26,117 bases of DNA from a virus: positions 1 to 26,117 of IMG/VR virus record IMGVR_UViG_3300042870_000518. One strand, 5' to 3'. The notes under the pieces were generated by a model, which was given only the letters and a program-made list of their open reading frames with translations, was not told the DNA's origin and did not search any database. Shown piece by piece: positions 817-12,446 of the stretch (position 1 is the first letter of the stretch; every line of letters begins with the position of its first letter). The translations under genes were made by a program, and so were the position numbers.

Positions 817-1872
817 TTAAAGTTCGTAAAAACCTTTGCCCCAAAGAGTCAAAAGACGAGTGAAGTATTTTTCGTACAGTAGTGCGTTGACGTCTAACCC
901 AAAACGATTGACTGCATATTCTCTAATCGCTTTACGGTCAAGAGTTGGGGCAGCGACAGCAGCGTCAATAAATTGTCGCAATGTACGGCAACGAAAACCA
1001 TTAACTCCGTGAATTACGTTTTCAGGAAAAGCGCCCCAGTCGGTTGTGATTACCGGAGTGCCACATGCCATCGCTTCGGCTACAACCAATCCAAATGGCT
1101 CGGTGTAAATAGTTGGCACAAAAGATGCAATCGCTCCGCCCATCAACTTGGCTCGTTCTTCTGTTCCCACAACACCCACGTACTCGCCGTAATCGGGCAC
1201 AGTTCCCTGTCCAGCGACTATGAGACGCTTTCCTAGGTGTCTGCAGACGTCTACGGCCACCTGATAGCCCTTACGGTCTATAAGCCGTCCTATGAAGAGA
1301 TAGTAGTCATCGGGTGTCTCTCTAAAAGGAAAGTCTTTTATGTCTACATGGCCTGGGATTACATCATCGTAAAACTGACCGTCTACGTCATTGGGGTTGC
1401 CAGCCGCTGCTCCGTAAACAACATGCATCCAGGCATAGGACTCAAAGACCTTGTACTTGGCAAAAGTCCCACCGTACCCAACTTCAAACTCTACGGTCAT
1501 ATTGTTGGGGAAAGCATCAGCAATCACTTTGTGCGCCCGTCCACCAATAACACAAATAAAGTCTTTGGGCTGGATTCGCTTAGCCATCTCTTCAATGGCT
1601 GTGTTGTTGAACTTAACCCAGTGAGGCAAGGAATAGTCAAAAGACGCAAGGGAATAATGCTTGCCTTCCAAGGAGTCAAGGCGCTCCTGCTCGGAAATGC
1701 ACATGATGTTCTCATCACAAGGCGCATCGGTGAATTCCCCACCGTAAAGAAAAACCTCATGATTGAGGGATTTCATCATTATTGCAAATTTACGAACATT
1801 CTCAGTAAACGCGCAAGCCGTGAAATCTAGGGTCGTGTTTGCGTGAGGAAGACCTACTACATGAAATCTCAT
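817..1872 (-). CDS. GT-B glycosyltransferase, family 4-like
   Basis: A 351-aa protein with the C-terminal Rossmann half of a retaining GT-B glycosyltransferase (Glycos_transf_1). FIGRLIDRKG at residues 193-202 is the usual start of the nucleotide-sugar domain, and EPFGLVVAEAMACGTPVITT (258-277) gives the E-x7-E signature (E258, E266) that contacts the sugar nucleotide. The N-terminal half (MRFHVVGLPH, then FTENVRKFAIMMKSLNHEV) fits the acceptor domain. No signal peptide or membrane segment is seen, so it should act in the host cytoplasm. The donor and acceptor cannot be read from sequence. It lies among fibre genes, 4 bases after a small hypothetical gene, so the target may be a fibre protein or a host surface polymer. 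Family call is firm; substrate is inference. Confidence 0.92.
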   Translation of the reverse strand: MRFHVVGLPHANTTLDFTACAFTENVRKFAIMMKSLNHEVFLYGGEFTDAPCDENIMCISEQERLDSLEGKHYSLASFDYSLPHWVKFNNTAIEEMAKRIQPKDFICVIGGRAHKVIADAFPNNMTVEFEVGYGGTFAKYKVFESYAWMHVVYGAAAGNPNDVDGQFYDDVIPGHVDIKDFPFRETPDDYYLFIGRLIDRKGYQVAVDVCRHLGKRLIVAGQGTVPDYGEYVGVVGTEERAKLMGGAIASFVPTIYTEPFGLVVAEAMACGTPVITTDWGAFPENVIHGVNGFRCRTLRQFIDAAVAAPTLDRKAIREYAVNRFGLDVNALLYEKYFTRLLTLWGKGFYEL

Positions 1873-2098: not shown

Positions 2099-3517
2099 TT
2101 AACAAGGGTCACCGAATACGTTAAGACAAGGCTCACTGGAAGTAAGGTTAATTGTATTTGTTCCGTTACAGACCGTAACAGAATAGAAAGCATTGCTGAA
2201 ACCGCAAGCGCCACAGGTTGGGTTAGGGAACGCATAGTACGAACCAGGGGTGCCAGTGTAGGTGTAATCTATTCCGCCCTGGCTGAAATCGCCTGTCTTG
2301 GCTGCGCTTGTGTAAGAGCCACAACCGGTACAACTGGTACAAGTTCCACCCGTGCAACTGCCGTAAGCGCCACTGCAAGCAGCGCTGTTGTCTGAGTTGC
2401 GTAGTGGACCCGGGGTGGAACTAGTAGCAGTCCTGGTCCATCTGTAGCAAAGTCTACTTCCAGTCCGGGTGGTGTTGGTTCCTGTACTTGTTCCGCAATC
2501 ACAAGCAGCACAGTCGCATGCTACTGAAGCACACGTTCCTGAATCTGTATATCCACCAAAAGCCCAAGCAATACTGGCCTCGGTAGTAAGCCCGCTCGCA
2601 TAGGGCCCTTGACCAACACCATTAACGCCACTGGCTCTTACTTTCCAACGGTCAGTTCTGTACTGGGTAGCCAAAGCCACAGATAGACCAGCAACTTCCG
2701 TATATCCATTTAGAGTTCCACCAATATTGCTGTACCAAGTGGTTCCGTTGTCGTTAGTAACCTGATATCTGTATGCAGTTACGGTGGAGCCATTAGATGC
2801 TGCTTGACTCCATGTAAACGTATCTGTTGTATCACCATGTGTTATTATTGCCGTTCCAGGAGGGCCTGGAACAGTCGCTGGAACCGCGCCTGCAGAAATA
2901 GTGGAGTACGAACTATCTCCGGCACAGTTTGTTGCTTTTACTCGGAAGTAATAAGTTGTTCCATTGGTCAGGCCATTCACTATCAACGGAGACGATGATG
3001 ATGTTGTTCCAAAAGTAGTAACAGAAGAGGCAAATGTTGAAGAAGTTGAGTACTGAACCGTGAACGTAAACGGAGGTCCGTTGCCACCAGTTCCGGCTCC
3101 GCTTGGTGCAACCCAAGACACAGAAGATTCTCCGTTTGCATTGGACGTACCCGACACACTGGTTGGAGCGTTGGGAACAGTTGCAGGAGTTATCACTGTA
3201 GACACGCCCGAGTAAGAGCCAGTTCCGTATGTGTTGACTGCTGCTACTTTAAAATAGTACGTCGTTCCGTTAGAGAGACCAGTTACTGTTGCTCCAGTTG
3301 ATGCAGATGTGCCATCCGAGAACGTGGTCCAACCACTGGTACCGTTAGTGGAGTATTGAACCACGTAGTCAGTGATTGCAGAACCACCATTGTTTGTTGG
3401 TGCGGTCCAAGAAAGAACAGACTGAGCGTTTGCGCATGTTGTAGCCGTAGGTGTTCCGGGAGTGCCTGGTACTGTGCCCAGAAAACCACTTGCTACGGTT
3501 CCTCTATGAAAAGGCAT
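2099..3517 (-). CDS. Fibronectin type III tail protein with cysteine-rich C-terminus
   Basis: A 472-aa protein. Residues about 18-112, 113-213 and 214-313 are three consecutive fibronectin type III domains, each with the proline-rich entry (VPGTPGTP, VPNAPTSV, VPGPPGTA) and, in the first two, the strand pattern ending GLSNGTTYYFKV / GLTNGTTYYFRV. Fn3 domains are common on tailed-phage surface proteins, where they are thought to give weak contact with cell-surface carbohydrate or to act as spacers. From residue 329 to the last residue (472, itself Cys) there are 16 cysteines in about 144 residues, including CDCAACDC and CTSCTGC. The start ATG shares one base with the stop of the collagen-like gene upstream (TAATG), so the two are probably translationally coupled. 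No enzyme motif seen. Likely a virion surface or fibre-tip protein. Confidence 0.9.
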   Translation of the reverse strand: MPFHRGTVASGFLGTVPGTPGTPTATTCANAQSVLSWTAPTNNGGSAITDYVVQYSTNGTSGWTTFSDGTSASTGATVTGLSNGTTYYFKVAAVNTYGTGSYSGVSTVITPATVPNAPTSVSGTSNANGESSVSWVAPSGAGTGGNGPPFTFTVQYSTSSTFASSVTTFGTTSSSSPLIVNGLTNGTTYYFRVKATNCAGDSSYSTISAGAVPATVPGPPGTAIITHGDTTDTFTWSQAASNGSTVTAYRYQVTNDNGTTWYSNIGGTLNGYTEVAGLSVALATQYRTDRWKVRASGVNGVGQGPYASGLTTEASIAWAFGGYTDSGTCASVACDCAACDCGTSTGTNTTRTGSRLCYRWTRTATSSTPGPLRNSDNSAACSGAYGSCTGGTCTSCTGCGSYTSAAKTGDFSQGGIDYTYTGTPGSYYAFPNPTCGACGFSNAFYSVTVCNGTNTINLTSSEPCLNVFGDPC

Positions 3518-4311
3518 TACGCGCTCAAGTCGCCAATAAGTACATAACTGTTGGTCGTGATACAGAATAATGTAGCCGAAGAATATTGAGCACGAAGTTT
3601 TAATCCAGGAGTAGCAACTGGAACTGCAGTGCCATTAAATGTTACGTTGCCGGTTCCAAAACGAAGAAAATCAATGCTTTGTCCTGCCGTTATGCCGATA
3701 CCACTATTTACGGTGATATTAATATCTCCACTATTTGTGAGTTGAATCAACTTGCCAACGTCAGATGAAGATGGAGTGTATGTTGCACCTGAAACAATTA
3801 TTTGTGAAGTTGCCCACGTCCCTTGCGTTCCCGATGCTCCAGAAACTCCCGAGACGCCACTAACTCCAGATACTCCAGATACTCCTTGTGCTCCAGAAAC
3901 TCCCGAGACGCCCGAGACTCCAGAAGCACCTTGCGGACCAGACACGGTAGAGGCAGTTCCACTTACACCAGAAACACCCGAAGCGCCCGACGGCCCTGTT
4001 GCGCCGATAACGCCAGAGACACCGCTTACACCGGAGACACCGCTAGGACCAGGAACCCCAGAAACACCCGAAACACCCGAAGCGCCCGACGGCCCTGTTG
4101 CGCCGATAACTCCGCTGACCCCCGAGATGCCTGAAATTCCGGAAACGCCCGAAACTCCACTAACCCCAGATACGCCACTGGGTCCTGTTGGACCAACAAC
4201 ACCTAAAGAGTCAACATTGAGCGCCCACTTACCATCCGTGTATGTCCACGTTTTGCCGTTTACGGTGTGGTTGTCACCTGGTGCAGGTGAGTTTGGGAAA
4301 TCAATAGCCAT
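3517..4311 (-). CDS. Collagen-like tail fibre (264 aa)
   Basis: Three parts are visible. Residues 1-35 form a short attachment module (DFPNSPAPGD then NGKTWTYTDGKW) that recurs at the start of the proteins at 14997-15227 and 12449-13213. Residues about 40-165 are Gly-X-Y repeats, mostly GVS with GATGPSGAS interludes and one gap (GTASTVSG). Residues about 170-264 form a beta-rich C-terminal domain (SSSDVGKLIQLTNSGDI, then LIGDLSA at the end) of a kind common at phage fibre tips and related to the C-terminal visible part of the gene at 1-741. Collagen-like repeats in phages are expected to form trimeric helices. A 41-bp perfect direct repeat lies inside. Probable receptor-binding or spacer fibre; overlaps the fibronectin gene start by one base. 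Confidence 0.93.
   Translation of the reverse strand: MAIDFPNSPAPGDNHTVNGKTWTYTDGKWALNVDSLGVVGPTGPSGVSGVSGVSGVSGISGISGVSGVIGATGPSGASGVSGVSGVPGPSGVSGVSGVSGVIGATGPSGASGVSGVSGTASTVSGPQGASGVSGVSGVSGAQGVSGVSGVSGVSGVSGASGTQGTWATSQIIVSGATYTPSSSDVGKLIQLTNSGDINITVNSGIGITAGQSIDFLRFGTGNVTFNGTAVPVATPGLKLRAQYSSATLFCITTNSYVLIGDLSA
3971..4110 (-). repeat. 41-bp perfect direct repeat inside collagen-like gene
   Basis: Bases 3971-4011 and 4070-4110 are identical over 41 bases and lie 99 bases (33 codons) apart, in the same reading phase. They encode a VIGATGPSGASGVS-type block, so unequal exchange between the copies would remove or add exactly 33 residues without breaking the frame. Confidence 0.85.
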
Positions 4312-4335: not shown

Positions 4336-5085
4336 CTATTGAGCCTTGGCCCACTGAATGACTTTTCGGCTTGTGTGCTGTGCAATGCAGTTGTCCCCAA
4401 TTGAGGTGATGTCATAACCAAGCGACTCAACATAGGCAATAATCTCCTTACGCCGTTCTTGGTACCAGTCCATAATGCTCCACGTCTCAAAGATGATGGG
4501 TGGATAATTGTTTGCCTTGAGGGTTTCTAGACCGCCCTTAATAACAGCCAACTCAAGACCCTCAACATCTATCTTGATGAGCCTGATGTTCTGAAATCCG
4601 TAATCGTCCAGTCGGTCAATCTGTATCTTTTCCAGCCTGCCCTGACTGGCGCAAACATTGTTATTCTCTTGAACGCCAGCATCCAGACTGAAAGCACCGA
4701 TATTCACTTCAACGGAATAATCAGGAGTAAATATTTCAACCTCAGCCGCAGTCTCTCCGAGACCCTTGTTTGTCAAATGAACATTCTCTAGGCCATTCAA
4801 AACAACATTGGCGCACAACTGATAGAAAACTATCCTCTGTGGTTCAAAACCGTAGAACTCAATACCAGGGAATTGTTTAGCCAAAGGAACAACATAGGTT
4901 CCGATATTGCTGCCGATATCTAGGACTACTCCGTCCTTGTTGTCTCCGACCAGGATTGTTGAATAATATTCCAGCCATGCGTCATGACCGGCACCTGACC
5001 GAAGCCCGTCACTGATTACGTCAGGCTTATCAAAGATAAGGAACTGGTTTCCCCTGCATTGAACTACGAGCATATTAGGCAGCAT
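4336..5085 (-). CDS. FkbM-family SAM-dependent methyltransferase
   Basis: A 249-aa protein with the FkbM methyltransferase layout: SAM-binding motif VVLDIGSNIG at residues 53-62, the acidic residue after strand 2 in GFEP (79-82), and the family's characteristic IKIDVEGLE block at 170-178 followed by a hydrophobic strand YPPIIFE (195-200). FkbM enzymes are O-methyltransferases, most often acting on sugar hydroxyls of glycans or on polyketides; in phages they are typically found with glycosyltransferases. No signal peptide is seen, so action is cytoplasmic. It closes the enzyme cassette, 11 bases after the small membrane protein and 24 bases before a collagen-like fibre gene. Family call is firm; methyl acceptor unknown. 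Confidence 0.93.
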   Translation of the reverse strand: MLPNMLVVQCRGNQFLIFDKPDVISDGLRSGAGHDAWLEYYSTILVGDNKDGVVLDIGSNIGTYVVPLAKQFPGIEFYGFEPQRIVFYQLCANVVLNGLENVHLTNKGLGETAAEVEIFTPDYSVEVNIGAFSLDAGVQENNNVCASQGRLEKIQIDRLDDYGFQNIRLIKIDVEGLELAVIKGGLETLKANNYPPIIFETWSIMDWYQERRKEIIAYVESLGYDITSIGDNCIAQHTSRKVIQWAKAQ

Positions 5086-5096
5086 AGAAATTTATT

Positions 5097-5381
5097 CTAA
5101 ACCCACCAAAAGTGTTTTAGGATAGAAAGACTGGCCAAGATAACCCAAGCCACATTGAATAGAATGATTGTAGGAAGAGTCTTTTCGGTAGATGACCAAA
5201 TCAGGGCAATGCTTGAAGCGATAGCGAAGATATAAACCCACCACCACTGGTAGCCAAGAAGCAAGCCGGGAAAGATAATGGCGATTTTGGTAGCAAAACC
5301 CCACGCCTCTACGATGTTGGGTTTAGTCCAATACCCCTTGTGAGACATTGTCTTGGTTGCTTGTATTACTTTGTTTATCAC
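5097..5381 (-). CDS. Small integral membrane protein (three predicted helices)
   Basis: A 94-aa protein from a GTG at 5381, three bases after the stop of the upstream oxygenase; an ATG at 5348 would give 83 aa, and neither has a clear ribosome-binding site, so the start is uncertain. Three hydrophobic stretches are visible, about residues 30-44 (IAIIFPGLLLGY), 46-64 (WWVYIFAIASSIALIW) and 70-90 (PTIILFNVAWVILASLSIL). The first 28 residues are polar and basic with two lysines, suggesting a cytoplasmic N-terminus. Rich in tryptophan. No family recognised. Could anchor the cassette enzymes at the membrane, be a transporter subunit, or be a holin-like or superinfection protein; none of these is shown by sequence. 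Confidence 0.72.
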   Translation of the reverse strand: MINKVIQATKTMSHKGYWTKPNIVEAWGFATKIAIIFPGLLLGYQWWWVYIFAIASSIALIWSSTEKTLPTIILFNVAWVILASLSILKHFWWV

Positions 5382-5384
5382 GTT

Positions 5385-6050
5385 CTATCTACTCATGTCA
5401 TTTACGAAAGCACGGGCTTCATCGGCGCGATATTGCTCGTACTGTTTTTCAATTGATTTTTCTTCTACGACTGGTTTTTCTATTAATTTTAGATGAGAAT
5501 TTTCTTTTTTGTCATATGCATGACTGGCCCAAGGACCGTTGGCGTCAACGTAATGATAGAACCCTTGAATGTGGTACGAATCTTGAGGGACGTTAAATAC
5601 GGGTCGGAAATGATTTACTTCCATTCCTTTGTACACAGCGCCGTCTCCTGGCTTCATTGCAATAGGGGTATCGCCCATAACTAGGGGCCACTCATAGTCT
5701 TTGCCACGGTAGTTGTACTCATAGCAAACGCTTACAGATATTTCGCAAGCAGGTCGGTCTATGTGTGGAGTCAGTTCCTGACCGCGTCTATAAACCCTGT
5801 AAAAAGAGTATGTAGGAATTAGTGATAATCCTGTAACTTCTTCTACCTTCTCTTTATAGTCAAGCAATAGGGACTCCATTAAGAAGTCTGCATAAACAGC
5901 GTGAGCATTGATTACCTGTGCTGTATCTGGACTGAAAGAATATGCTTCTTTCAGGAGTGCGTATTTTGACACAACAGACACGACAGAGGCGTCTGCAAAA
6001 TTGGGCACATAGACATAGTTGTCTGTAGAAAAGTTTTCAGACTTACTCAT
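5385..6050 (-). CDS. Fe(II)/2-oxoglutarate-dependent oxygenase (subfamily with HxD and GxGxxxYxG)
   Basis: I place the start at the ATG at 6050 (221 aa, MSKSENFSTD); a start at 6089 would overlap the previous gene by 47 bases, while this one overlaps by 8. The iron-binding facial triad is visible: H96 and D98 in TPHIDRPACEIS, and H147 in GDGAVYKGMEVNHFRP, with R149 next to it, then QGFYHYVDANGP at 162-173. This layout is known in a group of small 2OG-Fe(II) oxygenases distinct from the prolyl-hydroxylase type next door. The last about 45 residues are charged and probably helical (EEKSIEKQYEQYRADEARAF). Expected chemistry is hydroxylation or related oxidation using O2 and 2-oxoglutarate; substrate unknown. 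Part of the halogenase cassette. Confidence 0.85.
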   Translation of the reverse strand: MSKSENFSTDNYVYVPNFADASVVSVVSKYALLKEAYSFSPDTAQVINAHAVYADFLMESLLLDYKEKVEEVTGLSLIPTYSFYRVYRRGQELTPHIDRPACEISVSVCYEYNYRGKDYEWPLVMGDTPIAMKPGDGAVYKGMEVNHFRPVFNVPQDSYHIQGFYHYVDANGPWASHAYDKKENSHLKLIEKPVVEEKSIEKQYEQYRADEARAFVNDMSR

Positions 6051-6624
6051 AGCGCAGCCACGTGACAAGAGAGTATCTGATTCCCTCACTTACGGGGTGA
6101 ACAATATGTGGAAATGAATAGCAAGACGGAAAAAACACGACGTCGCCAGCAGACGGTTGGTACGTTATTCCTAGAGTTGGAAACTCTAGTTTTCCTCCCT
6201 CAAAGTCGTCGTTCAAAAAAGCAATCATGGACAGGACCCTGTCTTTGTGGTCACCACCACAATCAAAGTGTTGCTTATATTGTGTTCCTTTTTCATATTT
6301 TAAAATAAAATACCCTTCATCAACCAGTCCGCCCAAACTGTGGTGTTCGGCATATTCTGAAGTGGCTCCAGTAACTGCGTTAAAAACATATTCATCAAGT
6401 TTCTGTGTACCGCCATCAATTATGATGTGGTTTGGTAAGTGTATTAACTTGTTGCTTCTGTATAGATTCTGAATATTTGGATTGTCTCTATCTTCAAAAG
6501 TGCTGGCGTATACCCAGTTTAAAGAAATGTCGCTGTCTATTGCTTTTTCTATAGAGTCAATAATAATTTTAGGTTCACTCAACAACTTGTCGTAAACCCA
6601 TAACGAAGGGTGTAGTACTTGCAT
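6043..6624 (-). CDS. Fe(II)/2-oxoglutarate-dependent oxygenase, prolyl-4-hydroxylase-like
   Basis: A 193-aa protein about the size of the P4Hc catalytic core. The jelly-roll iron site is clear: H119 and D121 in YKQHFDCGGD, distal H173 in FPHIVHPV, and R183 in GIRYSLVTWL, the residue that binds 2-oxoglutarate. FLNDDFEGGKLEFP (136-149) and the SAGDVVFFPS strand (158-167) are standard for this family. Phage members of this type are widespread and their substrates are mostly unknown; animal and some bacterial relatives hydroxylate proline in proteins. Its start ATG shares one base with the stop of the 247-aa gene upstream (TAATG), and its end overlaps the next oxygenase by 8 bases, so translation is probably coupled. 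Confidence 0.92.
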   Translation of the reverse strand: MQVLHPSLWVYDKLLSEPKIIIDSIEKAIDSDISLNWVYASTFEDRDNPNIQNLYRSNKLIHLPNHIIIDGGTQKLDEYVFNAVTGATSEYAEHHSLGGLVDEGYFILKYEKGTQYKQHFDCGGDHKDRVLSMIAFLNDDFEGGKLEFPTLGITYQPSAGDVVFFPSCYSFPHIVHPVSEGIRYSLVTWLRYE

Positions 6625-7367
6625 TATTTTTCTTTTTTGGCTAGTTCAGTATCCACTCTGTGCTTATGCCGTCTATATGGTCCTGCGGTTCCTAGTGAAG
6701 GCATGATGTATCCCGACCCAAAGCCACTGTTTGCAACATACTTAAAATAAGATTCGTCTTCAAACTCAATGGATGAAAGATTAGTGCTTCGTTTAAATGG
6801 GACTACCTGCATCATAGGAGTTCCATAAGGAATCATAAAGTCTGTATTTGCTTTTATGTTTAAAACGATATTACTTACATGATAAAAATCTGTATGAACT
6901 ATTGCTGGCAAAACATCATAGTTCTCGTTTGGTTCCCAAGACAATGGGAGTATCAATGATGACCATCCTGGAGCAGTTTCAAAACGCCACGGACTTACAA
7001 TTTTTGGGTATTGCATATTCTCTAGTTTGCGAATACCAACAACAGGACATCCTGGCGTGTCCTGAACAGGAAATCCTTGAACCGATATGTTTTCAAGTGG
7101 TGGATTCATGTTCTCCATGCGTGATTCCCAGAAACCACCTTCTGGGTTTGGTCTGAAAAATAGATTGCTCCAAAGAGGAACAGTCATTCCCGCTGAAAGA
7201 TAGTCATTAACGCCTGCACACTTTTTTAAACCTGCACCGCTTGGCATTGTCTTGTACCACTTAGGCATTGTTAGTTGTGAGTTCAAATACGGAGGCATCT
7301 CCATTAGACGATTGTCTTCTGGGGTTACTCTAATATGTCCTGGCTTTACTGGTTTTTTCTTTTTCAC
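6624..7367 (-). CDS. Conserved protein of unknown function next to halogenase (247 aa)
   Basis: Starts at a GTG (7367) that overlaps the halogenase stop as GTGA. The N- and C-terminal ends are strongly basic (MKKKKPVKPG; RRHKHRVDTELAKKEK). The centre has PKWYKTMPSG, a KKCAGVNDYLSAGMTVPLWSN segment with one cysteine, then ETAPGWSSLILPLSW and a closing DFMIPYGTPMMQVVPFKR. I recall phage proteins with this APGWSSLILP / IPxGTPMMQVxPFKR pattern being found close to halogenase genes in marine phages, but I cannot name the family or its function. The IPxGTPMMQV strand resembles a beta-roll or cupin-like segment, which is only an impression. No signal peptide or membrane helix. Its overlap with the halogenase argues for a joint role. 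Confidence 0.85.
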   Translation of the reverse strand: MKKKKPVKPGHIRVTPEDNRLMEMPPYLNSQLTMPKWYKTMPSGAGLKKCAGVNDYLSAGMTVPLWSNLFFRPNPEGGFWESRMENMNPPLENISVQGFPVQDTPGCPVVGIRKLENMQYPKIVSPWRFETAPGWSSLILPLSWEPNENYDVLPAIVHTDFYHVSNIVLNIKANTDFMIPYGTPMMQVVPFKRSTNLSSIEFEDESYFKYVANSGFGSGYIMPSLGTAGPYRRHKHRVDTELAKKEK

Positions 7368-8860
7368 TGTTTATATTCCTCGTCTAGGTGACCAATCTCC
7401 AGCAATCCAATCTTGTGGTCAATCAGTTCGTGATTGTGTCTAGAGTTCCTAAAGTTGTCCATTTCCATATTGACTTTTTGCCGTAAATTTAGTCTATCAA
7501 GAGCAAGTGATGATGGCTCTTTCGGCAACAACCCCTGCCCCTGCATGACGTGAACTAAGTGAGGGACATGAAACATTAAGTTAGGTTCTTGGTATGGGTC
7601 GTACCTGGATGGTGCTTTTTCTGACCATAAATCAATTAATTCTTCAAGTTCGTCATTTAGTGGCATTGTTGCTTGGTCTGTCCAGAATTGGGTATCTCGT
7701 CTATCGGAAACATAGTGCAGTCTAATCATTGTAAGAATGTTTCTCATTGTTTGCGTAATTGTTTTATTGTAGGCAATTTGCATTTTTGATGACTTTTTAG
7801 TGTATGAAGCAACGTTTTGAATAAGAACCTTTAATTGAATTAAAGTACTTCCAATACTGGTGGCTTCCAGTGGTTCAACAAACGACGAAGCAAGACCCAC
7901 GGAAACACAGTTTTTTACCCACTGATTTTTTAAGAACCCTGCGTCGTATTTAAAAGTTTTAGGATTTTCTGGGACCTTATACCCGGTCATCGCTTCCGCT
8001 TCTTCAATAGCCTTGTCTGTAGAGATGTGGGCGGAAGAAAAAATGTAACCATTGCCGCGACGTTCTTGTGTTGGTATTTCAAACATCCACCCAGAAGATG
8101 CTGCTCTTGCACGAGTATATGGTCGTATTTGCCCATTAGGGTCGGACTCTGTTGGAAAAGCAATTGCCGAGTCACAAAGAAGATATGGTGAAAAAGACTC
8201 CCACTCCGTATTTCCTAGTTTTGTCATAAGTACTCTAGAAAAACCAGTAGCGTCAATCCAGAAATCAGCAGAAACAATTGATTGCTGTTCTGTTGTTACG
8301 GAAGATATTTCACCAGTTTCAGAATCAAGTTCTATTGAATCTACTTCAGCATCAATAAACTTAATCATTCTTGAAAAACACAAACCAGTTAAGTAGTCAT
8401 TCAGTTTGTTGGTATCAAAATGAAACTGGTTTGTTGTCATGTGAATGTTTCGTCTACCAATCTTGTTTTGCACAAGACCAACACTTCCAGTTTGGGAAGT
8501 GATTAGTTTATTGGAATCAATAAAACCTGCATAGGTAGCATATAAGCCGTGTGCAAAGATTTCATCCACTCCGCCAATGCTATGAAAGTAGTCAGGAGTA
8601 TGTGTTGTCCAATTTTCAAAACGAAGACCATACTTGTGGGTTGCACTTGTGTTTTCAATGAGTTCACTAGTTGGGATGTCGCATTGATTCATGAACTCAC
8701 GCCAATGTTCTGTAGAACCTTCGCCAACGCCAATAATACCTATTTTGGAAGAGGAGATTATTGTAATTTCGGAGTTCGTAAAAGCCCGTCGCAGCATTAA
8801 GGCAGAAACTAACCCAGCGGTTCCCGAACCAACAATGCAAAACGATAAATTGTTATTCAT
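7364..8860 (-). CDS. Flavin-dependent halogenase (tryptophan-halogenase family)
   Basis: A 498-aa protein, the usual length for the family. GSGTAGL at 11-17 is the FAD-binding GxGxxG; GVGEGSTEHW (44-53) matches the family's GVGEAT box; THKYGLRFENW (74-84) carries the lysine (K76) corresponding to the catalytic lysine that handles hypohalous acid (K79 in PrnA); GWMFEIP (257-263) is the WxWxIP motif with the second Trp replaced by Phe; FVEPLEATSIGST (327-339) holds the glutamate (E332) corresponding to PrnA E346. A related cyanophage enzyme, VirX1, is reported to halogenate, preferentially iodinate, diverse substrates. FADH2 must come from a reductase; none is encoded in this window, so a host enzyme is likely. 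Substrate unknown. Sits 6 bases after a 359-aa unknown gene and overlaps the 247-aa gene. Confidence 0.95.
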   Translation of the reverse strand: MNNNLSFCIVGSGTAGLVSALMLRRAFTNSEITIISSSKIGIIGVGEGSTEHWREFMNQCDIPTSELIENTSATHKYGLRFENWTTHTPDYFHSIGGVDEIFAHGLYATYAGFIDSNKLITSQTGSVGLVQNKIGRRNIHMTTNQFHFDTNKLNDYLTGLCFSRMIKFIDAEVDSIELDSETGEISSVTTEQQSIVSADFWIDATGFSRVLMTKLGNTEWESFSPYLLCDSAIAFPTESDPNGQIRPYTRARAASSGWMFEIPTQERRGNGYIFSSAHISTDKAIEEAEAMTGYKVPENPKTFKYDAGFLKNQWVKNCVSVGLASSFVEPLEATSIGSTLIQLKVLIQNVASYTKKSSKMQIAYNKTITQTMRNILTMIRLHYVSDRRDTQFWTDQATMPLNDELEELIDLWSEKAPSRYDPYQEPNLMFHVPHLVHVMQGQGLLPKEPSSLALDRLNLRQKVNMEMDNFRNSRHNHELIDHKIGLLEIGHLDEEYKQ

Positions 8861-8866
8861 TTTTAC

Positions 8867-9946
8867 CTACGAATATGCGATGTAAGACTTGATGTAATTA
8901 ACATCAAGAATCCACTGACTCTGTGTCAAGTCGGTGAATGGCGGAATTTGCTCCAATATTTCCATAGGAGACAAGGACAACTCTATACCATGCCTAATGC
9001 AGATTTCGTATATCTTTGATTCAATGTACTGCCGTTCCGAAGAAAGTACTTCTTCTGGGACAACGGGAGGAGAAGGGTGGTTGTGCACCAAAGCATTTAA
9101 TGTTCTGTATCGGTGGGTGCCCTTTATCCAGTTCAAAAAAAGTGGCCCAACACTAATTTGCTCAGTAAAACCACTGCGAGCATTTTCCTGATTACTAAAG
9201 TAACGGTACAGGGGCATGTCTTCTTGATGCTCAGATATTTCTGCTAATACGTTTTCTGGTATTTGAAGAGTGTTGATGTAGTTTTTGCACAGTAAAGCAA
9301 CCCTGTCTGTGCTATTGAATGGTTCGTCAGCAAGGGACGCCCATTCAATAATGAGTTTCATTAGACCTGTCAATGTTTTAGACATGCTTGACACAGCAGG
9401 CCAATCCCTAAAAGAGGTCCCCAATCCAGGCACCGCACCATACACGATATTCCCAACACCAGCAGAGGCAAGCATTATCGTGGCCTTGGTAATGTGTTTA
9501 AATAAAGAAATATCTGTTGGCGTAGGACGTACACCGTCTTCTAACAAAAGCATGGCAGGTCCGTATTTCCCTGCATCACAACGGTCAACTAACTGAAGAG
9601 CCTCGGTTTTTACAAAAGCAGGGGTCATCACCTTAGACGGCATTATGCAATACATGTCTTGTTCTTTAATATCTTCTTTGGAAAGATGTTGCAAAATATC
9701 GTCGTAACAAATAGCGTCAATAATTGACTCTTTGTTATCACAAACTAGAACGTAATTAAAGTCCCCTGAATAAGGGTCTAGTTCTTTAAAAGCAATAATT
9801 ATTTTATCCGCTGAAGTAAATACGTCATATTCGGTGTACTCAATATTCCCGCTAGGCGTCGGGGTATACAGCCTAAAATCAGTTACGCTATCAAAACTGT
9901 AGTAGCACTTATAATTTGCTGTATCTATTAGCGAAATATCGCTCAT
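8867..9946 (-). CDS. Unknown protein, first gene of the halogenase cassette (359 aa)
   Basis: Starts at ATG 9946 with an AAGGT ribosome-binding sequence about 6 bases before it, and ends 6 bases before the halogenase. I do not recognise it. Residues 1-110 look like a beta-rich domain (KIIIAFKELDPYSGDFNYVL). Residues about 120-260 look helical, with a glycine-rich hydrophobic segment IMLASAGVGNIVYGAVPGLG near residues 155-175. Residues about 290-359 contain NALVHNHPSPPVVPEEV and a helical EVLSSERQYIESKIYEICI stretch. A HNHP motif appears, but without the surrounding residues of JAB/MPN or HNH nucleases, so I do not assign either. No signal peptide. Context suggests an adaptor, substrate carrier or target of the halogenase and oxygenases, or simply a virion protein. 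Confidence 0.85.
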   Translation of the reverse strand: MSDISLIDTANYKCYYSFDSVTDFRLYTPTPSGNIEYTEYDVFTSADKIIIAFKELDPYSGDFNYVLVCDNKESIIDAICYDDILQHLSKEDIKEQDMYCIMPSKVMTPAFVKTEALQLVDRCDAGKYGPAMLLLEDGVRPTPTDISLFKHITKATIMLASAGVGNIVYGAVPGLGTSFRDWPAVSSMSKTLTGLMKLIIEWASLADEPFNSTDRVALLCKNYINTLQIPENVLAEISEHQEDMPLYRYFSNQENARSGFTEQISVGPLFLNWIKGTHRYRTLNALVHNHPSPPVVPEEVLSSERQYIESKIYEICIRHGIELSLSPMEILEQIPPFTDLTQSQWILDVNYIKSYIAYS

Positions 9947-9956
9947 TTTTTACCTT

Positions 9957-10184
9957 TTATGATAGTTCGGCAATTTTTGCTTCTGCACGTGCAATGTTGG
10001 TCAATAACGACCTTACTCGTGCTTCATTACCTGTTGGCGGTTCTTCAGGTACCCAGGTTGCTAAGTCAAATTCGTCGGGGTCAATCCCTAGTCCTACAAG
10101 GAGGCCGTACACTTCATTAAGCATATGCCTCTTCGTCTCCCTGAGTGAGTTAAGTTTTTGTTCTGCAGTTAAGTTGAATTCCAT
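9957..10184 (-). CDS. Small helical hypothetical protein (75 aa)
   Basis: A 75-aa acidic protein with a CGGAGA ribosome-binding site 5 bases before the ATG at 10184. Two amphipathic helices are likely, residues 6-31 (AEQKLNSLRETKRHMLNEVY) and 52-75 (NEARVRSLLTNIARAEAKIA), separated by a proline-rich loop WVPEEPPTG. The pattern fits a short coiled-coil or helical hairpin. It lies between the 748-aa fibre and the 359-aa cassette gene. Family not recognised. Similar small helical proteins near phage fibre genes often serve assembly, but that is inference. Confidence 0.78.
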   Translation of the reverse strand: MEFNLTAEQKLNSLRETKRHMLNEVYGLLVGLGIDPDEFDLATWVPEEPPTGNEARVRSLLTNIARAEAKIAELS

Positions 10185-10199
10185 GATTTCTCCGTTTTG

Positions 10200-12446
10200 T
10201 TAAGCGTTAAGAAGGATATAAGTAGTTCCAGAAGAAGCCGTATAAACATCGGATACTGCTGTAGTGCCAGAACGCACATCGTAGGACAATCCAGACGGTG
10301 TAGTTTCTGTCAAGATAAGAATAGCACCACCGCCACCTGCTCCGCCTCTTACTCCACTTGCGCCTGTAACTGAAGGTGAACCCGCTCCACCTGCTCCGCC
10401 GTTTCCTCCGGCTCCACCAATGCCACCTGCTACGCCAGCGCCTCCAGCACCTCCGGTACCTCCAGTACCGCCTCCGCCTCCTGCGCCTCCATGACCGCCT
10501 GCGCCACCTGCTCCCCCAGCGCCTCCAAGACCTCCTGCGCCACCTGCGCCACCTGCGCCACCTGCGCCACCTGCGCCTCCGGCCCCCCCAGCGCCTCCTG
10601 CGCCTCCGGCTCCGCCTGCTCCACCAACGTAATGAACGGTTGGATTGGCGTGGTGATGAGCATGAGAGGGCACGTGCTGTTGATGATGTGGATGTGTAGT
10701 GTGATGAGGATGAGTGTGGTGATGTCCACCATTAACATGATGGTGACCACCGGGCGTAGTGTGGTGACCGCCATTAACAGTATGTCCAGCATAATAACCA
10801 GACTTAGCGTTGTGTGAATCACAACAATGATGGTGTGGGTTTACGTGGTGATGAGGATGAGTGTGATGATGAGGGTTCACATGATGATGCCCACCAGGGG
10901 TATGATGGTGGCCATTAGGGGAGTGATGTGGAGTTGAATGGTGAGTTTGGCCAGCCGAATGCGGAGTAACCGTGTAGTCGGGCGCTTTAGTTCCGGCGGC
11001 ACCCGTAACTCCAGTAGCACCCGTCGTTCCTGTGGCTCCCGTCGTTCCTGTGGCTCCAGTTGTTCCCGTGGCTCCAGTGGTTCCTGTGGCCCCAGTGGTT
11101 CCTGTGGCTCCAGTTGTTCCTGAAACTCCTGAAACCCCCGAAATGCCACTAACTCCAGCAGCGCCCGTTGTTCCGCTTACACCGCTTACACCAGAAACTC
11201 CCGAAACTCCGGAAACCCCAGATGCACCAGATGCACCAGTGAGACCTGTTGCGCCGACAGCACCAACCATTCCAAGAGACATTACTGTTCCGGTACCTAT
11301 GATTGTCTTGGCAATGATGGCAACTACTGGTCCACCCGAACCGCCCGTTCCTCCTGAGCCGCCCGCTCCAGCAATTCCTGTTGCACCGGTTGCTCCACTT
11401 GCGCCGCTTGCTCCGCTTGCACCGCTTGCACTAGTTCCGCCTCTTGCTCCGCTTGCTCCGCTTGCACCGCTTGCACCTGTTGCGCCACTTGCCCCACTTG
11501 CACCAGTTCCGCCTCTTGCACCAGATGCACCACTTGCACCAGTTCCACCTCGGGCACCACTTGCCCCACTTGCACCAGTTCCGCCTCTTGCACCAGATGC
11601 ACCACTTGCTCCCGAATAACCCCTACCGCCAGCAGCGCCTACTGTTCCACCGTCAGTAGGGTGGCCTCCCGCCGTTCCTGTGGCACCTACTGACCCCACT
11701 GGACCCAATAGTCCTGTTGCACCTGCTGACCCCGTTGCGCCTAAAAGTCCTGTTGCACCTGCAAGTCCTGTTGCACCAGCAAGTCCTGTTGCGCCTGCGG
11801 CCCCCGCCGAACCAGCAAGTCCTGTTGCACCTGCAAGTCCTGTTGCACCAGCAAGTCCTGTTGCACCTGCAACTCCTGTTGCGCCTGCAAAACCTGTTGC
11901 TCCACTAATGCCAGACCACGGTGCGGTTGGAACTGGAGTTGTTGCGCCCGTAGCGCCAATCGTTCCCTTGGAACCTCCTGCTAATGGGGTGGGTGTGGGG
12001 CCGTAGACAGCATCAATAATTGCGCCACCAAGCATTGAAGTAACACTTTTAAGAAGATATGTAGGAAGAGCACTGACGTTTGGGTCGGTGTTTCCTCCGC
12101 CTTGTCCACCTAGTCGGTAAGTAATGGCACCAGAAGTGTGACCAGACAATGTTCCAGAAGACACAGCAGAGGCTGAACTAACAATTGTTCCATTACTAGA
12201 ACCAGCAGTGTTACCAGTGACATCACCAATACCAACAACACCATTAATAGTTGCAGTACCTTTAACAAATATTTTAAAACCTGCGGTAAGAAGAATGTTT
12301 CCCAAAGGAACAGTTAGTGTGTTGTAGTGCATATCCCTTGTAAGGGTTACGGTTCCACTGATGGTTACGTCGCCATCTGCGCCATTTCCGTAAACAGCGT
12401 CATTTCCTGAACGAACAACGCTTGTTTCAATTCTTGAAATTGCCAT
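10200..12446 (-). CDS. Giant glycine-rich fibre with collagen-like, histidine-rich and polyglycine blocks (748 aa)
   Basis: Order of parts: residues 1-75, a beta-rich N-terminus (VYGNGADGDVTIS, LTRDMHYNTLTV, FKIFVKGTA) shared with the next protein upstream at 12449-13213; about 178-340, Gly-X-Y repeats of GATGLA and GASGARGGT types; about 355-385, a hydrophobic strand insert (PVVAIIAKTIIGTGTVMSLG); about 390-485, GVSG and GTTGAT repeats; 496-605, a block with 43 histidines in 110 residues plus one CC pair; 606-690, polyglycine of GGA triplets; about 695-748, a closing beta segment (GGGAILILTETTPSG ... YILLNA). Glycine-rich phage adhesins such as the gp38 tips of T-even relatives fold GGx tracts into polyglycine-II sandwiches, which this block may do. 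Likely a large surface fibre or adhesin. The gene holds several direct repeats. AT its start it is separated from the previous gene by two bases. Confidence 0.93.
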   Translation of the reverse strand: MAISRIETSVVRSGNDAVYGNGADGDVTISGTVTLTRDMHYNTLTVPLGNILLTAGFKIFVKGTATINGVVGIGDVTGNTAGSSNGTIVSSASAVSSGTLSGHTSGAITYRLGGQGGGNTDPNVSALPTYLLKSVTSMLGGAIIDAVYGPTPTPLAGGSKGTIGATGATTPVPTAPWSGISGATGFAGATGVAGATGLAGATGLAGATGLAGSAGAAGATGLAGATGLAGATGLLGATGSAGATGLLGPVGSVGATGTAGGHPTDGGTVGAAGGRGYSGASGASGARGGTGASGASGARGGTGASGASGARGGTGASGASGATGASGASGASGARGGTSASGASGASGASGATGATGIAGAGGSGGTGGSGGPVVAIIAKTIIGTGTVMSLGMVGAVGATGLTGASGASGVSGVSGVSGVSGVSGTTGAAGVSGISGVSGVSGTTGATGTTGATGTTGATGTTGATGTTGATGTTGATGVTGAAGTKAPDYTVTPHSAGQTHHSTPHHSPNGHHHTPGGHHHVNPHHHTHPHHHVNPHHHCCDSHNAKSGYYAGHTVNGGHHTTPGGHHHVNGGHHHTHPHHTTHPHHQQHVPSHAHHHANPTVHYVGGAGGAGGAGGAGGAGGAGGAGGAGGAGGAGGLGGAGGAGGAGGHGGAGGGGGTGGTGGAGGAGVAGGIGGAGGNGGAGGAGSPSVTGASGVRGGAGGGGAILILTETTPSGLSYDVRSGTTAVSDVYTASSGTTYILLNA
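10380..10631 (-). other. Polyglycine (GGA) block, possible polyglycine-II lattice
   Basis: This part encodes roughly residues 606-690 of the 748-aa protein as consecutive GGA triplets with occasional GGL, GGH, GGT, GGI and GGN. Such spacing, glycine at two of three positions, is what polyglycine-II helices in phage adhesins use. Boundaries are approximate. Confidence 0.7.
10534..10577 (-). repeat. 9-bp tandem repeat, nearly five units
   Basis: The plus-strand unit CCTGCGCCA is repeated four times exactly from 10534 to 10569, followed by eight further matching bases to 10577. Each unit encodes one GGA triplet, so slippage changes the polyglycine block in frame. Confidence 0.9.
10632..10961 (-). 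other. Histidine-rich block (43 His in 110 residues)
   Basis: Codons for residues 496-605 of the 748-aa protein. Histidines come in HH and HHH clusters spaced by Gly, Pro, Asn and Thr, for example GGHHHVNPHHHTHPHHH, with a CC pair near the middle. The density and spacing are typical of metal-binding tracts (Zn, Ni, Cu or Fe); no metal can be named from sequence. Confidence 0.9.
11485..11609 (-). repeat. 53-bp direct repeat, 72-bp period
   Basis: Bases 11485-11537 and 11557-11609 are identical over 53 bases with a 72-base offset (24 codons). They encode GASGASGARGGT units of the 748-aa fibre. Confidence 0.85.
11745..11864 (-). repeat. 48-bp direct repeat, 72-bp period
   Basis: Bases 11745-11792 and 11817-11864 are identical over 48 bases, again offset by 72 bases (24 codons). 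They encode GATGLAGATGLA units of the 748-aa fibre. Confidence 0.85.

What the first reader, a model, noticed from the sequence alone, without database searches (positions are those of the whole stretch)
4336..9946. Seven-gene halogenase / oxygenase / methyltransferase cassette embedded among phage fibre genes
Seen: seven consecutive minus-strand genes (unknown 359 aa, flavin halogenase, unknown 247 aa, two 2OG-Fe(II) oxygenases, three-helix membrane protein, FkbM methyltransferase) separated by at most 11 bases and mostly overlapping, flanked on both sides by collagen-like fibre genes. Known: a cyanophage flavin halogenase (VirX1) is active; 2OG oxygenases and FkbM enzymes modify proteins, sugars or small molecules. 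Inference: this is one pathway, expressed late with structural genes, making a halogenated and/or hydroxylated and methylated product. Late co-expression fits a virion or cell-surface target better than a takeover of early metabolism.
Basis: partly seen in the sequence, partly recalled or inferred. Interest (0 to 1): 0.82.

Follow-up and report, generated by a model that had tools for sequence, protein, structure and literature searches.

The report
Phage tail-fibre locus with fixed halogenase
A group of uncultured phages, and some distantly related marine phages, keep a halogen-adding enzyme, usually with a fixed partner protein and oxygen-using enzymes, right behind their glycine-rich tail-fibre genes, which suggests they chemically decorate the part of the virus that touches the host.

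Summary
The seven genes are there as described, but they are not one fixed pathway. A core, halogenase plus the 247-aa protein (with a P4H-type 2OG oxygenase in most loci), sits just behind a Gly-rich, His-rich adhesin gene (window 10200-12446). The 359-aa protein, second oxygenase, FkbM enzyme and 94-aa protein come and go.
Tests: of 80 loci chosen by the halogenase, 78 have the 247-aa gene adjacent (one of the other two ends at the halogenase). All 20 loci chosen by a neighbouring fibre gene that share no sampled 60-mer with the halogenase- or 247-aa-selected loci carry the halogenase. Halogenase and 247-aa distances correlate at r = 0.91, against 0.17 for the 94-aa gene.
WhiB genes (19 of 20 long related contigs) and no psbA (0 of 20) point to actinobacterial hosts. 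Yet some marine cyanophages, including the source of VirX1, have a like layout.
The 247-aa protein has a dUTPase-like signature, but the residue aligned with the catalytic Asp is His or Asn in 50 of 50 window-type proteins.
Best reading: a fibre-linked modification module whose substrate is the adhesin's His/Tyr/Trp-rich segment. Location, co-inheritance and intact catalytic residues are shown; substrate, product and timing are inferred.

The parts
10200..12446 (-). Gly-rich, collagen-like adhesin with a His-rich segment (20 His in 40 residues): proposed substrate
   Evidence: PF01391 collagen 2.6e-20; His count. Distinct genes at this place have >=10 His/40 aa in 54 of 57 cases, against 8 of 576 other ORFs of >=150 aa
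12449..13213 (-). 254-aa fibre-type protein without His-rich segment; upstream neighbour of the adhesin
   Evidence: U254 family; used to select loci independently of the halogenase. No PHROG match; 'fibre' is by sequence likeness and place
9957..10184 (-). 75-aa protein between adhesin and cassette; function unknown (assembly factor?)
   Evidence: Family within 7 genes of the halogenase in 74 of 80 loci; distance correlation r 0.79
8867..9946 (-). 359-aa protein, optional; part of it homologous to 216-236-aa proteins that often travel with a 75-aa-like gene
   Evidence: Alignment; variable place; AF2 pLDDT 66, no solved-structure match at E <= 0.001
7364..8860 (-). flavin-dependent halogenase (core)
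   Evidence: PF04820 1.2e-102; GxGxxG glycines, Lys76 and Glu332 in 81 of 81 rows; dN/dS 0.04-0.05
6624..7367 (-). 247-aa partner, dUTPase-like signature, position 158 His/Asn (core)
   Evidence: phrog_7084; PF00692 in 10 of 50 family members, best 6.4e-6, none for the window protein; weak profile match to solved dUTPases; H/N at 158 in 50 of 50
6043..6624 (-). P4H-type 2OG-Fe(II) oxygenase (near-core)
   Evidence: PF13640 1.4e-15; prolyl 4-hydroxylase structures 9e-9; HxD 71 of 71 rows, His173 70 of 71
5385..6089 (-). second 2OG-like oxygenase (accessory); an ATG start at 6050 is possible
   Evidence: phrog_2954 1.7e-43; HxD 7 of 7; near the halogenase in 6 of 80 loci
5097..5381 (-).
   Evidence: Distance correlation with halogenase r 0.17 over 34 loci; membrane helices not tested
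4336..5085 (-). FkbM-type methyltransferase (accessory)
   Evidence: PF05050 5.5e-11; near the halogenase in 5 of 80 loci
3517..4311 (-). collagen-like fibre protein downstream
   Evidence: sequence
817..1872 (-). GT4-type glycosyltransferase downstream (possible fibre glycosylation)
   Evidence: PF00534 1.1e-17; phrog_3408 1.4e-78

Best explanation
A fibre-linked modification module. The halogenase, its 247-aa dUTPase-fold-like partner and a P4H-type oxygenase are made with the tail-fibre genes and halogenate and hydroxylate the Gly-rich adhesin encoded just upstream, most likely Tyr, Trp or His side chains in its His-rich/aromatic segment. The host supplies reduced flavin. Optional genes (FkbM, a second 2OG enzyme, P450, glycosyltransferases) add further changes. 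Shown: gene order, co-inheritance, catalytic residues, dUTPase-like signature, a like layout in two halogenase clades. Inferred: substrate, product, timing, and a halogenase-partner complex.
For: Halogenase-selected: 247-aa gene adjacent in 78 of 80 loci (75 downstream, 3 upstream; L161 ends at the halogenase, L198 has none); within 7 genes in 47 of 48 non-redundant loci. 247-aa-selected: halogenase within 7 genes in 76 of 80; in the other four the gene starts 2-520 bases into the contig. Fibre-gene-selected, divergent set: halogenase in 62 of 62 loci with at least 5.6 kb downstream, 55 downstream on the same strand; all 20 that share no sampled 60-mer with the halogenase- or 247-aa-selected loci have it, 19 downstream and 1 upstream. 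His-rich segment in 54 of 57 adhesins against 8 of 576 other ORFs. Distance correlations with the halogenase: 247-aa .91, 138-aa .81, 75-aa .79, P4H .71, U254 .53, TM94 .17. Cyanophages: all 12 records with the Syn10-type Gly-rich fibre (6 phages, duplicates and Syn10/syn9 pooled) have a halogenase shortly downstream on the same strand (gene tables of the six put it 0.45-0.7 kb after the fibre gene); 14 of 15 records (with duplicates) with the Syn10 247-aa homologue have it next to a halogenase. Fibre-locus halogenases form two starred clades. No flavin reductase (PF01613) in 20 contigs, which are fragments.
Against: No chemistry or virion proteomics. Gene neighbourhood is not substrate. The His-rich segment weakens in some lineages (5-7 His/40 in L193, L194, L196; 6 in L331, L334, L335) although the halogenase stays. 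The adhesins of the two halogenase clades were not shown to be homologous, and the cyanophage ones carry only 6-14 His in all. Three of the six cyanophages with that fibre (S-SZBM1, S-WAM1, P-RSM6) gave no 247-aa match. Other phage halogenases have no fibre gene annotated within 6 kb (P-SSM2, S-H38, HTVC008M). The 20 loci come from one broad phage group, some near-identical, so they are not 20 evolutionary events. P450 and methyltransferases also fit small-molecule tailoring.
Confidence: 0.58

Rival explanations
1. A small halogenated metabolite (antibiotic, signal or toxin) is made during infection; the fibre locus is just where the genes sit.
For: Iyer et al. (PMC7824862, passages read) predict that for a 10-gene cyanophage cluster (SSM6a and others) with halogenase, 2OG enzymes and carbamoyltransferases; capsule decoration is their alternative. 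S-CREM1 authors assume free Trp (passages). A P450 sits in some related cassettes (PF00067 3.5e-29).
Against: None of the cassette ORFs scanned matched a carbamoyltransferase, carrier protein or backbone-making enzyme. Fibre-gene-selected loci carry the halogenase. A Gly-rich fibre gene and a halogenase go together in two halogenase clades.
Confidence: 0.2
2. Host surface glycan or lipid is modified (superinfection exclusion), with GT4 and FkbM as the sugar part.
For: FkbM and GT4 beside the cassette in the window; GT4 within 7 genes in 16 of 80 loci.
Against: FkbM in 5 of 80 and GT4 in 16 of 80 loci; the core persists without them. TM94 is decoupled.
Confidence: 0.09
3. No pathway: fibre loci are recombination hot spots that collect morons, and adjacency is hitch-hiking.
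For: The accessory genes do shuffle; cyanophage 2OG genes are many, and S-SZBM1's are described as scattered (passages).
Against: Near-constant halogenase/247-aa adjacency, r 0.91; like layout in a second halogenase clade; dN/dS 0.03-0.13.
Confidence: 0.08
4. Nucleotide or DNA modification: the dUTPase-like protein holds a nucleotide that the halogenase and oxygenase change.
For: dUTPase-like signature; weak Tet_JBP match of the P4H protein, 0.0017, below cut-off; Syn10 homologue has Asp at the aligned place.
Against: That Asp is His/Asn in 50 of 50 window-type proteins; best solved relatives of the oxygenase are prolyl 4-hydroxylases; no DNA-modification family among the scanned cassette ORFs apart from PHROG labels that look wrong.
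Confidence: 0.05

Closest known systems
VirX1 (cyanophage Syn10 flavin halogenase; PDB 6qgm)
   Same: Phage flavin-dependent halogenase; Syn10 has two Gly-rich fibre proteins (PF21722), phrog_1787, VirX1, a second halogenase, a phrog_7084 protein, a small gene and 2OG-type proteins in order
   Different: Window halogenase belongs to a separate clade, 28% identity; window has one halogenase, a His-rich collagen-like adhesin, and relatives that look like actinophages
Cyanophage S-CREM1 locus (collagen-like, stress-response-like, halogenase, 'triphosphate nucleotidohydrolase', small gene, eight 2OG enzymes and a JmjC)
   Same: Same order of Gly-rich fibre, halogenase, 247-aa homologue and oxygenases
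   Different: Authors read the halogenase as an auxiliary gene for free Trp (PMC9964418, passages)
Predicted halogenated-metabolite cluster of SSM6a-type jumbo cyanophages (Iyer et al. 2021, PMC7824862, passages)
   Same: Phage halogenase with 2OG/cupin oxygenases and methylases
   Different: Has carbamoyltransferases; no fibre or 247-aa partner in the passages read
dUTPase fold
   Same: Profile match around motifs III-IV; 47 of the 50 Foldseek rows shown (of 803) are titled dUTPase, but from a poor model and none at E <= 0.001
   Different: Residue aligned with the motif III Asp is His/Asn in window-type proteins; long N-terminal part outside the match
Prolyl 4-hydroxylase (3itq, 5hv0)
   Same: 2OG-FeII_Oxy_3 core, HxD...H
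   Different: Similarity limited (E 9e-9 over 71 residues); the adhesin has only 27 Pro in 748 residues (identical protein in L127)

Membership tests
Flavin-dependent (tryptophan) halogenase, PF04820 | Family profile over nearly the full length | tested here: met
   E 1.2e-102, residues 8-452
Flavin-dependent (tryptophan) halogenase, PF04820 | GxGxxG, catalytic Lys and Glu | tested here: met
   81 of 81 rows; which Lys and Glu are catalytic is recalled, matched by the alignments
Flavin-dependent (tryptophan) halogenase, PF04820 | WxWxIP motif (recalled) | tested here: inconclusive
   Third position W in 69 of 81 rows, F in 12 including the window; fifth position I 79, L 2
Flavin-dependent (tryptophan) halogenase, PF04820 | Halogenating activity | not testable with these tools
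   no assay
VirX1 orthologue | Same clade as VirX1 | tested here: not met
   Separate starred clades
dUTPase | Family profile | tested here: inconclusive
   PF00692 in 10 of 50 members at E <= 0.01, none for the window protein; hits in 7 of 20 contigs, over cut-off in 2
dUTPase | Catalytic Asp of motif III (assignment recalled) | tested here: not met
   His 41, Asn 9 of 50; alignment to E. coli Dut. Syn10 homologue reads GILDPKYGH, Asp at that place
2OG-Fe(II) oxygenase (P4H type) | HxD...H iron ligands | tested here: met
   HxD 71 of 71, His173 70 of 71 distinct rows of 170-215 aa
2OG-Fe(II) oxygenase (P4H type) | Prolyl hydroxylation | not testable with these tools
   no assay
Iyer et al. 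phage halogenated-metabolite cluster | Carbamoyltransferases in the cluster | tested here: not met
   None among the cassette ORFs scanned; not every ORF of every locus was scanned
Cyanophage auxiliary metabolic gene | Cyanobacterial host | tested here: not met
   On relatives: psbA 0 of 20, WhiB 19 of 20 contigs, one of them (G018, L007) with 93% halogenase identity; controls rang. Not tested on the window, a 26-kb fragment

The most novel reading that the evidence does not exclude
Phages of actinobacteria and, separately, marine cyanophages carry a dedicated machine, possibly a trimeric halogenase with a trimeric dUTPase-fold guide, that halogenates and hydroxylates aromatic and His residues in the trimeric Gly-rich receptor-binding tip. 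This would be a genetically fixed, phage-made halogenated virion protein, and the native job of VirX1-type viral halogenases.
Probability: 0.38. Interest if true: 0.92.

Novelty: new variant of a known kind. Interest (0 to 1): 0.75.

Why it matters
The native substrate of viral flavin halogenases is open: papers whose passages I read call them auxiliary genes for free Trp, antibiotics or metabolites. A constant place behind a fibre adhesin, in two halogenase clades, makes one clear prediction that ordinary virion proteomics can test in cultured cyanophages. If right, it adds halogenation to the ways phages alter their fibres, and supplies a natural protein-halogenating system.

Tried and rejected
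Seven-gene unit: rejected, four genes shuffle. Cyanophage nature of the window's relatives: rejected. Gp23 search rang nowhere, controls included, so says nothing. Structure of the 247-aa protein: pLDDT 44, used only as a pointer. The 359-aa protein: no solved-structure match by profile at E 1 or by fold at E 0.001; three uncharacterised phage proteins in BFVD at E <= 0.001. Promoter scan at chance level (14 found, 14.2 expected); terminator-like sites 16 against 8.3, not interpreted. Bacterial origin of the 247-aa gene: the genome scan gave 3 relatives, all in MAG contigs that look like phage by eye (L290 and L291 carry a like order; L289). Worm-jaw analogy (His/Gly-rich halogenated protein) is recalled; a search listing was seen and the passages read on halogenated Tyr and His do not cover the jaw protein. 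The statement that no paper links phage halogenases to tail fibres rests on searches and on passages of ten papers; the VirX1 paper itself is not held. Habitat of the contigs was not looked up; that many are from lakes is recalled from IMG numbers.


Full report
WHAT IS THERE. The window is a whole 26,117-base virus record. Its main genes run on the minus strand: fibre genes, the seven genes of the finding, more fibre genes, a glycosyltransferase. The seven genes are spaced by at most 11 bases. A 75-aa gene lies between them and the upstream collagen-like gene.

THE CORE AND THE PASSENGERS. In the halogenase-selected set the 247-aa family lies within 7 genes in 78 of 80 loci, directly downstream in 75 of the 79 with a downstream gene and directly upstream in 3; of the other two, L161 ends at the halogenase and L198 shows none. 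Below 90% identity: 47 of 48. From the other side, 76 of 80 loci chosen by the 247-aa protein have the halogenase within 7 genes (39 of 41 non-redundant); in the four others the gene starts 2-520 bases into the contig. Within 7 genes of the halogenase: P4H family 73 of 80, 75-aa family 74, a 138-aa family 62 (absent from the window), U254 62, 359/236-aa family 53, TM94 51, GT4 16, OxyB 6, FkbM 5 (some loci are cut by contig ends, so these are lower bounds). Distances follow the halogenase with r .91 (247-aa).81 (138-aa).79 (75-aa).71 (P4H).53 (U254).51 (359/236-aa).17 (TM94), over 34-52 loci each; shared ancestry alone raises such values, so TM94 and U254 serve as inner controls. So the usual unit is adhesin, 75-aa, 138-aa, P4H, halogenase, 247-aa; the window is a variant without the 138-aa gene and with P4H downstream.

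THE ADHESIN. The gene before the 75-aa gene is Gly-rich and holds a His-rich stretch: 54 of 57 distinct examples have at least 10 His in 40 residues, against 8 of 576 other ORFs of 150 aa or more; four of those 8 lie where the adhesin is expected. To test the link without using the halogenase, loci were chosen by the U254 protein upstream of the adhesin. Close set: plus-strand halogenase in 56 of 60 loci with at least 5.6 kb downstream; the four others are contigs that reappear in the second set, where their halogenase lies on the opposite strand about 5 kb away. His stretch of at least 10 in 64 of 69. Divergent set: 62 of 62, of which 55 downstream on the same strand; His stretch of at least 10 in 54 of 71, at least 7 in 68 of 71. 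Twenty of the 62 share no sampled 60-mer with the loci found by halogenase or 247-aa protein, and all 20 carry the halogenase. Only the best 80 of 220 and of 346 relatives were returned, so more distant fibre genes without halogenase may exist.

HOSTS. Of 20 long related contigs, 19 carry WhiB (of 14 controls only Corynebacterium rang) and none psbA (only Synechococcus rang). One relative lies in a MAG labelled Actinomycetota. DSL-LC01, a metagenome-assembled phage with Actinomycetia as predicted host, has collagen, collagen, a YHYH protein, a divergent halogenase (26% identity), a glycosyltransferase and WhiB in order. Two contigs in a MAG labelled Gammaproteobacteria have adhesin, 138-aa-like protein, a 2OG-like protein (by eye), P4H, halogenase, 247-aa protein; the 138-aa match there is weak.

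CYANOPHAGES. In Syn10 the order is two Gly-rich fibre proteins (phrog_863, PF21722), phrog_1787, VirX1, a second halogenase, a phrog_7084 protein (1.8e-71), a small gene and then 2OG-type proteins (phrog_81 in three of the three scanned there). Profile comparison ties the Syn10 protein to the window's 247-aa family (97.8%, E 1.2e-12). Of 15 phage records with this homologue, 14 have it next to a halogenase; S-RIM4, a weak match, has none annotated within 6 kb. Two further records, Sf-CH5 and Sf-CH8, match only the window protein, at 26%; Sf-CH8 has no halogenase annotated within 6 kb, Sf-CH5 was not looked at. Of 12 records (6 phages) with the Syn10-type fibre, all have a halogenase shortly downstream; for comparison 20 of 153 cyanophage genomes had one in PMC10452541 (passages). 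Three of those six phages gave no 247-aa match. S-CREM1, Sf-FP1, P-TIM40 and S-RIM44 repeat fibre (PF21722, two genes before the first halogenase), halogenase(s), 247-aa homologue; 2OG enzymes are labelled behind it in S-CREM1 and Sf-FP1 and were not tested in the other two. In the halogenase tree, fibre-locus enzymes form two starred clades; S-H38 and P-SSM2, with no fibre gene annotated within 6 kb, group beside the window's clade, and DSL-LC01 is a long branch of unsure place. The root is unknown, so one origin with later change of place is as possible as two recruitments. The adhesins of the two clades were not shown to be homologous.

PROTEINS. Halogenase: GxGxxG, Lys76 and Glu332 in 81 of 81 rows; the WxWxIP motif reads W-x-F in 12 rows, the window among them. 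No flavin reductase gene was found in 20 contigs (controls rang in 13 of 14), so the host would supply reduced flavin. The 247-aa protein: PF00692 hits in 10 of 50 members, not in the window's; profile match to solved dUTPases E 0.001. Of the seven contigs with PF00692 hits, six hits fall on the 247-aa gene by coordinates and the seventh (L203) on a second copy between another halogenase and a 2OG-like gene (by eye) on the same contig. Position 158, aligned with the catalytic Asp, is His in 41 and Asn in 9 of 50, so dUTP hydrolysis is unlikely there; the Syn10 protein has Asp. dN/dS 0.03-0.13.

HOW IT PROBABLY WORKS. The module is made with the fibre genes (inferred from the tight order). The halogenase makes hypohalous acid at host-reduced FAD (known chemistry); the partner may hold or orient the substrate. 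VirX1 is a trimer with a large open active site (PMC8407142, passages); dUTPases and fibres are trimers too (recalled), so a three-fold complex is an attractive guess, untested. The P4H-type enzyme would hydroxylate the same protein. Small-molecule tailoring remains the main rival.

WHAT IS NEW. Viral halogenases and phage clusters with 2OG enzymes are in print (passages). I found no paper linking them to tail fibres or naming a constant partner (searches; the VirX1 paper is not held).

Noticed in passing
L073:7762-8994 (-) and related loci: A cytochrome P450 gene (PF00067 3.5e-29 in the one member scanned) sits inside several related cassettes, mostly between the 236-aa and TM94 genes; family of 11 ORFs in the set.
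   Followed up: partly
L010:16073-17024 (-), L028:9680-10672 (-), L040:8759-9684, L006:10254-11163, L008:11399-12323: A two-gene unit (75-aa-like plus 216-236-aa protein homologous to part of the 359-aa protein) recurs near fibre genes on either strand; function unknown.
   Followed up: partly
L013:2921-3601; L014:7240-7983: A family of about 226-262 aa just upstream of the halogenase in 19 of 80 loci looks methyltransferase-like by eye; no Pfam match for the two members scanned.
   Followed up: no
L203: Contig 3300042291_001557 carries a second, divergent halogenase/247-aa/2OG-like set about 10 kb from the first.
   Followed up: partly
PHROG labels (phrog_2954, 3531, 274, 2297): Labels 'ferrochelatase' and 'DNA endonuclease (V)' are attached to families that match 2OG-type oxygenases, and 'DNA endonuclease V' stands on such genes in phage records.
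   Followed up: no
window 10200-12446: The His-rich stretch of the adhesin could bind metal; not examined.
   Followed up: no
L014:10270-10965, L169:3449-4174, L110:6764-7267: Other relatives add a second 2OG-type enzyme or a protein matching phrog_1574 and, weakly, a glycosyltransferase family after the 247-aa gene.
   Followed up: partly
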